64,000 nucleotides of DNA from Natronoflexus pectinivorans. Its GTDB lineage: Bacteria > Bacteroidota > Bacteroidia > Bacteroidales > Marinilabiliaceae. Where the stretch lies: the NCBI RefSeq assembly GCF_004345615.1, contig NZ_SLWK01000003.1, positions 310,001 to 374,000 of the forward strand, given 5' to 3'. The notes under the pieces were generated by a model. The model worked only from the letters and a program-made list of their open reading frames with translations. It was not told where the DNA came from and made no database searches. The translations under genes were made by a program, and so were the position numbers. Shown here in pieces: positions 17,720 to 20,310 of the stretch; the first letter of the stretch is position 1, and every line of letters begins with the position of its first letter.

Positions 17720-17761
17720 AGATAAAAATTTAAGCGAACAGCTATTTCGGAGTTTTTTATC

Positions 17762-17792
17762 TTGTTTATCTCAATCAAAATTCGTTATTTTG
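17762..17792 (+). promoter_or_regulatory. Candidate promoter for the metallothionein-like gene
   Basis: TTG at 17762-17764 is followed after 20 bases by TTATTTTG at 17785-17792, a 7-of-8 match to TAnnTTTG. The ATG lies 26 bases after the box. It sits in the divergent gap with wcaF. Confidence 0.3.
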
Positions 17793-17817
17793 TCATACGA
17801 ACTAAAATGGAAGACTT

Positions 17818-17976
17818 ATGAGCAATTCATATGAAACAGACAAAGGGGAAGTTTACGTATATACCGGAGCTACCCAGCAGAATGAGCAATCGAAATGTGG
17901 TTGCGGAGGAAACTGCGCTTGCAAAAGCGGTTCGGGAGGGTCTTGTAAATGCGGTGGAAACTGCAAATGTAAATAA
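17818..17976 (+). CDS. Small Cys-rich metallothionein-like protein
   Basis: A 52-codon frame starts with ATG at 17818-17820 and ends with TAA at 17974-17976. The first 26 residues are polar (start MSNSYETDKGEVYVYTG). The rest holds two near-identical clusters, CGCGGNCAC (27-35) and CKCGGNCKC (43-51), joined by KSGSGGS. All eight cysteines are in CxC pairs. This is the pattern of a small metal-thiolate protein binding Zn, Cu or Cd in the cytoplasm. It resembles CxC-rich plant and fungal metallothioneins more than the cyanobacterial SmtA type, whose His residues are absent here. The in-frame stop just upstream (17803-17805) fixes the start. The shape is seen directly; metal binding is inferred. 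An alternative is a Cys-rich linker peptide. Confidence 0.75.
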   Translation: MSNSYETDKGEVYVYTGATQQNEQSKCGCGGNCACKSGSGGSCKCGGNCKCK

Positions 17977-17990
17977 ACATCCAACCCGGA

Positions 17991-18090
17991 AGTTAAGGAG
18001 CCTACGGATACTTTACATCGACATCTCACTTCAAAATACATTCGTTCAACCTGTTGCTTATAATCAAAGTATCCGTAGGTGCTTACTATA
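17991..18090. repeat. REP/MITE-like inverted-repeat element
   Basis: CCTACGGATACTTT (18001-18014) is repeated in perfect inversion as AAAGTATCCGTAGG (18066-18079), and the outer flanks (AGTTAAGGAG versus the complement of TGCTTACTA) are also partly complementary. The 51-base interior has no coding sense. It could fold as a long-loop hairpin after the metallothionein-like gene. Confidence 0.6.
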
Positions 18091-18096
18091 GACCAA

Positions 18097-18150
18097 TAGA
18101 TTACTAGATATTAGATTATTAGATATTAGATTGTTAGATATTAGATATAA
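18097..18150. repeat. Tandem repeat of TTAGATATTAGAT type
   Basis: About four irregular copies of a 12-14 base unit (AGATTATTAGATATTAGATTGTTAG and so on) lie immediately after the inverted-repeat element. Non-coding. Confidence 0.65.
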
Positions 18151-18454: not shown

Positions 18455-19363
18455 ATGAATGAATTTGTCTCCGGAAATCTGGGAGAATTATCCGCATTAT
18501 TAACAGCATTCTGCTGGACTTTTACCAGTCTTGCCTTTGAATCCGCAGGGAAAAAAGTAGGATCACTACCCGTCAATCTGATTCGTCTTGTAATGGCACT
18601 TTTCTGGCTCGGTTTTTACACACTTATTACCAACGGACATTTTTTCCCGCAAAACGCATCCACGCATGCATGGGTTTGGTTAAGCGTATCCGGTTTAATT
18701 GGCTTCGTCATCGGTGACCTGCTTCTATTTCAGGCGTTTGTGGTTACAGGTGCAAGAATATCTATGTTACTTATGTCGCTTTCGCCCCCATTAACAGCCC
18801 TGTTTGGCTGGCTAATTATTGGTGAAAAATTATCCATTGCAAATTCTATCGGAATGTTCGTTACAATTTGGGGAATTGCACTGGTCATATTAGCCAAACC
18901 TGTAAAAGGGAGAAAAATGCAATTTCACTACCCCGCAAAAGGAATTCTTTTAGCTCTGGGTGGAGCTGCAGGTCAAGGCCTCGGACTGGTACTTAGTAAA
19001 TTCGGAATGCAGGACGCCGATCCTTTTATGTCGACACAAATTAGAGTGATAACTGGCATTATAGGTTTTTCAATTCTCTTCACGATAACCGGAAAATGGT
19101 ATCAGGTAAAAGCAGCCATGAAGCATACCAAAGCCATGTGGCATATTACAATCGGCTCATTTTTCGGTCCATTTTTGGGTGTTTCGTTAAGCCTGTTGGC
19201 CATAAAATATACCACCACGGGTATTGCATCAACGCTGAACTCTCTAACACCTGTACTCATCATACCCCTGGCATGGTATTTTTTCAAAGAAAAAATAACC
19301 ACTAAAGAAGTTATTGGAGCCTTTCTGGCAGTAGCAGGTGTTACAATCTTTTTTATTTACTAA
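18455..19363 (+). CDS. EamA/DMT superfamily transporter
   Basis: A 302-residue inner-membrane protein with about ten hydrophobic segments in two EamA repeats, the usual size for drug/metabolite exporters of this superfamily. The N-half carries the characteristic GELSALLTAFCWTFTSLAFE opening. The ends of the two halves show the family-typical pattern of a TxP-containing loop, a hydrophobic stretch and GExL or KEK (LTALFGWLIIGEKL at about 109-122, LTPVLIIPLAWYFFKEK at about 265-281). Substrate unknown; amino acids or other small metabolites are usual in the family. It is convergent with a second, distantly related EamA gene. Confidence 0.88.
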   Translation: MNEFVSGNLGELSALLTAFCWTFTSLAFESAGKKVGSLPVNLIRLVMALFWLGFYTLITNGHFFPQNASTHAWVWLSVSGLIGFVIGDLLLFQAFVVTGARISMLLMSLSPPLTALFGWLIIGEKLSIANSIGMFVTIWGIALVILAKPVKGRKMQFHYPAKGILLALGGAAGQGLGLVLSKFGMQDADPFMSTQIRVITGIIGFSILFTITGKWYQVKAAMKHTKAMWHITIGSFFGPFLGVSLSLLAIKYTTTGIASTLNSLTPVLIIPLAWYFFKEKITTKEVIGAFLAVAGVTIFFIY

Positions 19364-19419
19364 AAACCCTCCTACCATTCCACCCTCTCACAATATCACC
19401 TTTTCACCTTATCCCCTAT

Positions 19420-20310
19420 CTACCCCATCATCAAAATGATAATACCAATCAAAATCCCGGCTAATAAAATCCCTTTTCGGCCAATGTTGACCTCATGAAA
19501 CAACATAGCTCCAAAAAAGAATGCCACAACCACACTACCTCTGCGAAGTGTAGACACAACCGAAATAAGTGCTTCAGGAAAATCCAGTGCGTAGAAGTAC
19601 AAATAATCGGCAATTACCAGAAAAAGGCCAATTAGAGGAATGCTCCAACGCCAAATCAGGGGAAGTGGATTCGCCATAGTCTTTCTGATCACAAAAACAA
19701 CCGGCAACAGGAGTACAATCTGATAAACGCTAAAAAAAGCCTGAACCGCCATTCGATCGACGGTCTGAATAAGAAACTTATCGAACAGTGCACTGGCAGA
19801 GGCAAACAATGTACCTAAAACAGCAAACCAAACCCATTTATTATGCCGGAATGAAATGCCCTCTTTGCGACCGGCAGTTGAAAACATAAAGAAAAAGAAA
19901 AGAGTAATGGTTAACCCAATCCACTGAACAATGCTCAACCGCTCAGAATAAATAATCAAAGCTCCCATGAGTGTCCAGACTGGAGCTGTTGCACGGATGG
20001 GTGAAGCAATGGTTATGGGTAGATGCTTCAGTGAGAAGTATGAAAAAATCCATGATGTTAAAACAATAATAGTCTTGGATAATATCAACAAATGCTCATG
20101 AAACGAAATCACTGGCACATATAAATGGCTGCCTGCCTCAATAATCCCTGCTCCGGAAAGAATAATAAGTGGCAGAAAAACAACACTACTGCTGAAAGTA
20201 CTGTACAACAACACCAACCACACAGCATTATCTTTTAGCGCATGTTTCTTAATAACTTCGTATATACCCAGAAAAACTGCGGAAGACAACGTAAGGAATA
20301 ACCAGACCAT
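19420..20310 (-). CDS. EamA/DMT superfamily transporter
   Basis: A 296-residue protein with about ten hydrophobic segments and the two-repeat EamA layout. The N-half ends in APVWTLMGALIIYSERLS (about 107-124) and the C-half in RRGSVVVAFFFGAMLFHE (about 255-272), the family GExL-like positions. The sequence is clearly different from the convergent transporter at 18455, so this is a separate family member rather than a recent duplicate. The gap between the two stop codons (56 bases) is a C-rich low-complexity stretch. Substrate unknown. Confidence 0.86.
   Translation of the reverse strand: MVWLFLTLSSAVFLGIYEVIKKHALKDNAVWLVLLYSTFSSSVVFLPLIILSGAGIIEAGSHLYVPVISFHEHLLILSKTIIVLTSWIFSYFSLKHLPITIASPIRATAPVWTLMGALIIYSERLSIVQWIGLTITLFFFFMFSTAGRKEGISFRHNKWVWFAVLGTLFASASALFDKFLIQTVDRMAVQAFFSVYQIVLLLPVVFVIRKTMANPLPLIWRWSIPLIGLFLVIADYLYFYALDFPEALISVVSTLRRGSVVVAFFFGAMLFHEVNIGRKGILLAGILIGIIILMMG

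What the first reader, a model, noticed from the sequence alone, without database searches (positions are those of the whole stretch)
17818..17976. Small metallothionein-like protein with two CxCGGNCxC clusters
Seen directly: a 52-codon frame with eight cysteines in two matching clusters (CGCGGNCAC and CKCGGNCKC), no other obvious domain, a clean start fixed by an upstream in-frame stop, and a plausible promoter. The CxC-rich form resembles plant and fungal metallothioneins rather than the bacterial SmtA/BmtA type that uses Cys plus His. Genes this short are easily missed by length cut-offs, so relatives could be widespread in this clade but unannotated. It lies between wcaF and an exporter gene without a recognisable metal regulator.
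Basis: partly seen in the sequence, partly recalled or inferred. Interest (0 to 1): 0.75.

Follow-up and report, generated by a model that had tools for sequence, protein, structure and literature searches.

The report
Clade-specific bacterial metallothionein-like gene
This short gene makes a tiny cysteine-rich protein that very probably grips metal ions; it is a real, selected gene found so far in one group of bacteria and matched by none of the family libraries tried, with its own tightly conserved control switch.

Summary
The 52-codon frame at 17818-17976 belongs to a family of 48-53 aa proteins, one copy each in 17 of 71 genomes of the host's family. All eight cysteines in two CxCGGxCxC-type clusters are invariant. 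dN/dS is 0-0.16 in the 8 of 14 pairs where dS was computable.

No Pfam, NCBIfam, PHROGs or PDB entry matches convincingly; a few members show sub-threshold similarity to eukaryotic metallothionein profiles. Draws from order, phylum and class gave no convincing relative outside the family.

Sixteen of 17 copies share an operator-like element abutting the -33 position, at fixed spacing to a Bacteroidota-type -7 box. No other site of comparable score appeared in 71 genomes. This predicts gene-specific control.

Best reading: a cytosolic metallothionein-type metal buffer, outside the SmtA/BmtA family. Metal, inducer and transcription were not testable. Unexpectedly, in eight relatives a 39-nt stretch, identical in all eight, and a terminator-like hairpin follow the gene: a candidate small RNA, absent from this window.

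The parts
17818..17976 (+). CDS of the metallothionein-like protein, 52 aa, 8 Cys, 0 His, 5.3 kDa
   Evidence: open and conserved in 17 of 71 family genomes, dN/dS 0-0.16 in the 8 of 14 pairs where computable
17896..17922 (+). first Cys cluster, CGCGGNCAC (residues 27-35)
   Evidence: all four Cys kept in 17 of 17 copies
17944..17970 (+). second Cys cluster, CKCGGNCKC (residues 43-51); resembles the first (19 of 27 bases identical)
17745..17764 (+). operator-like conserved element TTTCGGAGTTTTTTATCTTG (family consensus TTTCGGACAAATTTGTCTTG, imperfect dyad), its TTG end in the place of the -33 element
   Evidence: mean information 1.60 bits per column against 0.56 just upstream, 16 rows; no other site of comparable score
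17786..17792 (+). -7 promoter box TATTTTG (TAnTTTG type), 21 nt after the operator-like element, as in 16 of 17 copies (13 exact, 3 degenerate)
   Evidence: Bacteroidota consensus TAnnTTTG / TTTG from a passage of PMC7366714
17803..17805 (+). in-frame TAA that fixes the start codon
18001..18079 (+). downstream stem-loop (14-bp arms 18001-18014 and 18066-18079, 51-nt loop, no T run); possible end of the transcript, inferred
   Evidence: z -3.4; this pair of arms occurs once in the genome

Best explanation
It is a cytosolic metallothionein-type protein. Shown: a one-copy gene, conserved with all eight Cys in two CxCGGxCxC-type clusters, under purifying selection, behind a conserved promoter whose -33 region is embedded in a conserved element of which no comparable second site was found. 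Inferred: it is transcribed alone; the unfolded chain wraps its eight thiolates round thiophilic d10 metal ions, either as two M(II)Cys4 sites (Zn/Cd) or as one or two Cu(I)-thiolate clusters, and so buffers or detoxifies them. I put Cu(I) and Zn/Cd at about even. Also inferred: a regulator encoded elsewhere binds the element and switches this gene on under metal excess or a related stress. The conserved N-terminal 20-25 residues, of unknown role, may be a docking or stability segment.
For: 17 of 71 family genomes hold one copy open over its whole length. All 8 Cys, the Lys after the first cluster and a Lys, Arg or His after the second are kept. dN/dS is 0-0.158 in the 8 of 14 pairs where dS was not saturated. 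Mass is 4.9-5.5 kDa, Cys 15-17%, with no F, Y, W or H after the first Cys in the window protein. The N-terminus is hydrophilic, with no signal peptide by eye. The promoter element keeps its 21-nt spacing in 16 of 17 copies. The 52-position promoter profile finds those 16 at E 2.3e-9 or better (15 were training rows), and the next best match in 71 genomes has E 0.003. A perfect stem of 8 bp or more lies within 260 nt downstream in 15 of 17 copies, terminator-like by eye in about 10; no shuffled control was run. A few members match metallothionein profiles below threshold.
Against: No metal-binding, structural or expression data. No family model reaches its cut-off, PHROGs gave none at E 1, and no solved structure matches at E 10. 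Three Tyr lie in the N-terminal part, where classical metallothioneins have few or no aromatics (recalled). The folded model is poor (pLDDT 51.5, single sequence) and says nothing about the Cys part. No metal transporter or metal regulator was recognised among the eight neighbours scanned. The one RND pump scanned (beside the G013 copy) scores best with multidrug-type models, above CusA/CzcA, all below cut-off. The operator scan at 2 mismatches itself finds only 10 of the 17 copies, so degenerate sites at other genes could have been missed.
Confidence: 0.82

Rival explanations
1. A metallochaperone or structural zinc protein: the two clusters hold one Zn each in fixed sites and the conserved N-terminal part docks on a partner, so the protein delivers metal or scaffolds rather than buffers.
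For: The N-terminal 20-25 residues are conserved beyond what a pure metal buffer needs (Tyr15 in 14 of 15 aligned rows; a GEV motif followed by aromatic and aliphatic residues in one subgroup); the weak model shows two strands there.
Against: CxCGGxCxC places four Cys within nine residues, with CxC spacing unlike the CxxC of zinc ribbons (recalled); no neighbour gene is shared by all copies.
Confidence: 0.1
2. [quoted passage not shown]
For: PMC7387436 (abstract and introduction read) reports this for a bacterial metallothionein without a metal-responsive regulator beside it; here too none was recognised among the neighbours scanned.
Against: An element apparently private to this gene points to control by one signal rather than a general stationary-phase programme; which signal is unknown.
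Confidence: 0.1
3. A chance frame without a product.
For: Short; overlaps an 86-codon frame on the + strand and a 62-codon frame on the - strand.
Against: Open in 17 of 17 copies, length differences in whole codons, Cys invariant, dN/dS far below 1, conserved promoter.
Confidence: 0.01

Closest known systems
SmtA/BmtA-type bacterial metallothioneins (cyanobacteria, Pseudomonas; Pfam name Metallothio_Pro recalled)
   Same: Small, Cys-rich, bacterial; the Pseudomonas type also lacks an adjacent metal-responsive regulator (PMC7387436).
   Different: No profile match; no His in the window protein, and none shared by the whole family although 8 of 17 copies have a His before each cluster, while SmtA has a zinc-finger fold (PMC7558416 section 4.3) and the Pseudomonas protein a Zn3Cys9His cluster (PMC7387436); no SmtB-type repressor among the four window neighbours scanned.
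MymT, copper metallothionein of mycobacteria
   Same: About 5 kDa, from an overlooked short frame, Cys-rich; predicted to bind up to six Cu(I) (PMC7558416 section 4.3).
   Different: Not compared by sequence here (not fetched); metal unknown here.
Plant metallothioneins (Pfam PF01439, PF02068)
   Same: CxC-rich, Gly-rich Cys clusters joined by a linker (recalled); 2 of 15 members match PF01439, best E 0.01.
   Different: Match not significant and not by the window protein; different kingdom; best read as convergence.
Csp copper storage proteins
   Same: Cytosolic (Csp3) thiol-based metal store (PMC7558416 passages).
   Different: Csp is a pre-folded four-helix bundle forming tetramers; this chain is 52 aa and Gly-rich.

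Membership tests
Metallothionein superfamily (functional class) | Low mass and high Cys content | tested here: met
   5.3 kDa, 8 of 52 residues Cys (15.4%); family 4.9-5.5 kDa, 15-17%
Metallothionein superfamily (functional class) | CxC motifs conserved across relatives | tested here: met
   Four CxC, all Cys kept in 17 of 17 copies
Metallothionein superfamily (functional class) | Few or no aromatic residues (recalled) | tested here: inconclusive
   No F, Y, W or H after the first Cys in the window protein, but three Tyr before it
Metallothionein superfamily (functional class) | Binds several d10 metal ions in metal-thiolate clusters | not testable with these tools
   Needs purified protein
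SmtA/BmtA bacterial metallothioneins | Match to the family profile | tested here: not met
   No such match in Pfam or NCBIfam for the window protein or for any of 15 members at E 1
SmtA/BmtA bacterial metallothioneins | His among the metal ligands (zinc-finger fold) | tested here: not met
   No His in the window protein or in 5 further copies; 3 copies have one and 8 have a His before each cluster, so it is not a family-wide feature
SmtA/BmtA bacterial metallothioneins | Adjacent SmtB-type repressor (many cyanobacterial cases) | tested here: inconclusive
   Neighbours were grouped by similarity; the 8 scanned, four from the window and four from one relative, show no regulator; other neighbours were not scanned
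MymT | Sequence relation to mycobacterial MymT | not tested
   MymT was not fetched
Plant metallothioneins PF01439 | Convincing match to the family profile | tested here: not met
   2 of 15 members, best E 0.01, not the window protein

The most novel reading that the evidence does not exclude
A clade-private metallothionein with a one-gene regulon, controlled by an undescribed metal sensor at a new operator (TTTCGGACAAATTTGTCTTG). In three genera it is coupled to a downstream, almost unchanging small RNA that carries the same stress signal to other genes, so that metal buffering and RNA control travel together.
Probability: 0.12. Interest if true: 0.75.

Novelty: new variant of a known kind. 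Interest (0 to 1): 0.45.

Why it matters
The function of only a few bacterial metallothioneins has been studied; PMC7387436 names two before its own. The parts of papers I read (PMC10612145 and PMC7558416 passages; PMC7387436 introduction; PMC7558416 section 4.3) describe SmtA-type proteins and MymT as the bacterial examples and mention no Bacteroidota family. If this protein binds metal as predicted, it is a further solution in a lineage whose one named host here, A. saponilacus, is listed among isolates from a soda lake with very high sulfide in its lower layer (PMC4237134 passages). The conserved element, apparently private to the gene, gives a direct handle for finding a new regulator, by pull-down with a 50-bp DNA. 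It also shows that a family of about 50 residues under strong selection can be missing from Pfam and NCBIfam.

Tried and rejected
Chance frame: rejected by conservation and dN/dS. SmtA-type membership: rejected. A wider regulon for the element: the consensus scan of 71 genomes at up to 2 mismatches gave 13 places, 10 at this gene and 3 elsewhere (G008, G071, G036), against 17 places for the reversed control; 7 of the 17 copies, the window's among them, exceed 2 mismatches, so this scan is not very sensitive. A scan with the promoter box included, 3 mismatches, in the 17 genomes gave 162 places against 217 for the control; all listed places with at most one mismatch are at the gene (15 genomes seen; the list was cut before G018; G002 has none). 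The profile search found nothing near (its stricter filters can lose weak sites). My first pattern had one base too many between the halves and was uninformative.

Mobile spread: no match on plasmids; in viral contigs 254 stretches matched a peptide pattern and none encoded a relative. A functional link to the RND pump: the pump genes are convergent, present beside 6 of 17 copies within the stretches fetched, and the one scanned scores best with multidrug models. A riboswitch: only two sub-threshold snoRNA matches near the gene, none at gathering score in the window. Structure prediction: uninformative. A search for remote Cys-rich genes at the EamA locus of 15 genomes without the gene: 13 had an EamA match at E 1e-30 (one, G006, only 36% identical); no CxCGGxCxC-like frame lay within the loci. 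One of them (G007) has the wcaF-EamA pair less than 100 bp apart without the gene. Paper searches for a Bacteroidota metallothionein (listings seen) showed none; most subscription papers, such as the 2011 Blindauer review cited, were not read.

Full report
What is there. The frame 17818-17976 (+) reads MSNSYETDKGEVYVYTGATQQNEQSKCGCGGNCACKSGSGGSCKCGGNCKCK. An in-frame TAA at 17803-17805 fixes the start. It is the only one of 1006 stop-to-stop frames of 30 codons or more in the window with four CxC motifs, and 20 base-shuffled windows gave no CxCGGxCxC. The window lies in contig C3 of a 4.47-Mb genome with a single copy. Its nearest relative (G001) appears to be Alkalitalea saponilacus: the named record NZ_FUYV01000004.1 carries the near-identical copy on a contig of the same length.

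Relatives. A profile search found the gene once in 17 of 71 genomes of the same family (7 of 21 genera), each open over its whole length; two further weak matches contain stops. In A2 (15 different proteins) all eight Cys, the Gly after the second Cys, the Lys after the first cluster and Gly-Gly of the second cluster are invariant; Tyr15, Gly31 and Asn32 nearly so. G028 has CGEN and G076 CGGS instead of CGGN. Outside the family nothing convincing was found. In the order draw 3 of 393 genomes matched, all from the family. In the phylum draw 2 of 395 matched: the window genome and one match with a stop inside. In the class draw with the Cys part alone, 4 of 395 matched, two from the family; of the other two, one has no CxCG..CxC in any of six frames of its 3-kb locus and one has a stop inside. 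These draws are samples of larger groups. The scan of the 84,980-species collection, which needs short exact peptide matches, confirmed one locus, in A. saponilacus. Plasmids and viral contigs gave none.

Selection. Fourteen pairs were compared. dS was computable in 8, with dN/dS 0, 0, 0.057, 0.058, 0.111, 0.111, 0.154 and 0.158; in 6 it was saturated. The two values of 0.111 come from near-duplicate pairs, and counts per pair are small. The window copy and its sister differ by four synonymous changes, one replacement and one codon-length indel.

Composition. Mass is 4.9-5.5 kDa and Cys 15-17% in all 17. His is absent from the window protein and five others; three copies have one, and eight (G013, G028, G023, G032, G018, G075, G076, G002) have a His before each Cys cluster, where it could serve as a ligand in that subgroup.

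Family libraries. No Pfam or NCBIfam family reached its cut-off for the window protein, and PHROGs gave none at E 1. For 15 members Pfam gave PF01439 in 2 (best E 0.01), PF02067 in 1 (0.043) and PF02068 in 1 (0.37), all weak; NCBIfam gave two unrelated weak families. No PDB sequence matched at E 10.

Control region. Upstream sequences align on TTTCGGACAAATTTGTCTTG followed by TAnTTTG. In 16 of 17 copies the box lies 21 nt after the element: 13 with exact TAnTTTG, three degenerate (G018, G076, G072). The exception, G002, carries the element in the opposite orientation near the start codon, and a weak forward form. Mean information per column (16 rows) is 1.60 bits over the element, 0.97 in the spacer, 1.72 in the box and 0.56 in the 26 columns upstream. 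The last TTG sits where the -33 element is expected for the Bacteroidota sigma factor (-7 TAnnTTTG, -33 TTTG; passage of PMC7366714). GA and TC at the ends of the dyad are invariant, but the inner left half is degenerate in the window copy (GGAGTTT), so the dyad is imperfect. If the box spans -11 to -5, the dyad centre falls near -41.5, the usual place of an activator that touches the polymerase (recalled); this is inference.

Apparently private to the gene. At up to 2 mismatches the 19-base element occurs at 13 places in 71 genomes, 10 of them at this gene; the reversed control occurs at 17 places. Seven of the 17 copies have more than 2 mismatches and are not found this way. With the box included and 3 mismatches there are 162 places in 17 genomes against 217 for the control; all listed places with at most one mismatch are at the gene (list cut by the tool). 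A 52-position profile gives 16 copies E 1.8e-14 to 2.3e-9, and the next match in any of 71 genomes 0.003. Fifteen of the 16 were training rows, so the result is the absence of others, not the finding of these. I infer a dedicated site, or one much stronger than the regulator's other sites.

Neighbourhood. Two main settings occur. In the window and 7 other genomes a WcaF-type acetyltransferase gene lies divergently before it (window copy: NF007797, 222.7 bits, cut-off 192), and EamA exporter genes (PF00892) follow. In 6 genomes a convergent TolC/RND/adaptor set lies after it, with an EamA gene beyond in 5. G028, G018 and G002 differ. No neighbour is shared by all. A perfect stem of 8 bp or more lies within 260 nt downstream in 15 of 17 (no control run), so the gene is most likely transcribed alone. 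On a tree of the EamA protein (23 rows) the label needs two changes (shuffled mean 7.9), compatible with one gain and a loss in G007. That genome, a long branch in the tree, has the wcaF-EamA pair less than 100 bp apart without the gene.

Mechanism. With no signal peptide by eye, the protein should be cytosolic. Eight thiolates in two four-Cys clusters suit two Zn/Cd sites or a Cu(I) cluster; I could not decide between them. Gene-specific induction is inferred from the promoter. AlphaFold2 on the single sequence gave pLDDT 51.5, with two strands in residues 2-16 and nothing in the Cys part.

An unexpected neighbour. In the eight genomes of genera g5, g13 and g18, TCTTTGGGTTTTTGAAGGAAGTGAAGTTGCCTGAAGAGA follows the gene, identical in 8 of 8, and a terminator-like hairpin comes next. 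One hairpin pair changes on both sides in two rows (G-C to A-T, G005 and G018); other arm changes, as in G023 and G075, are not compensated (read by eye). Some gene pairs within this set are saturated at synonymous sites (G013/G023, G005/G076), others are close. The 62-nt RNA with the hairpin folds well (z -4.8). A model of it, run on the window and 31 loci, finds the eight; the rest are mostly the hairpin read on the other strand or chance matches. One search found it in no other locus then held. Rfam has no match at threshold. Plasmids, phages and viral contigs gave none. It sits beside the metallothionein gene in all eight and beside the RND set in six, so it goes with the former. Whether it occurs elsewhere in those genomes is untested.

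Verdict. The finding is real and slightly better than described. It is a new bacterial metallothionein-like family, of a known functional kind, with unusual and testable control. It is not a member of the SmtA/BmtA family by the tests run here.

Noticed in passing
L069:7982-8062 (and L068, L070, L071, L072, L073, L075, L076): 39-nt stretch identical in 8 of 8 genomes (three genera) just downstream of the metallothionein gene, followed by a terminator-like hairpin; candidate small RNA without a Rfam match at threshold; not found in the window or the other loci tested.
   Followed up: partly
window 18001-18079: Unusual stem-loop: two 14-base arms CCTACGGATACTTT with a 51-nt loop and no T run; this pair of arms occurs once in the genome and is shortened to 11 bp in the sister species.
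   Followed up: partly
window 18099-18148: Imperfect tandem repeat of about TTAGATATTAGAT between the gene and the EamA gene, seen by eye.
   Followed up: no
window 18455-20310: Two EamA-family transporter genes convergent to each other, near the metallothionein gene in many relatives (first in 12 of 17, second in 9 of 17 stretches fetched).
   Followed up: partly
L110:1380-1530 (G007): The wcaF-EamA pair less than 100 bp apart without the metallothionein gene between them, an empty site in a relative.
   Followed up: yes
L069:7822-7971 (G013 copy) and seven other copies: In 8 of 17 family members a His stands shortly before each Cys cluster, absent from the window protein; may mark a subgroup with other metal ligands.
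   Followed up: no
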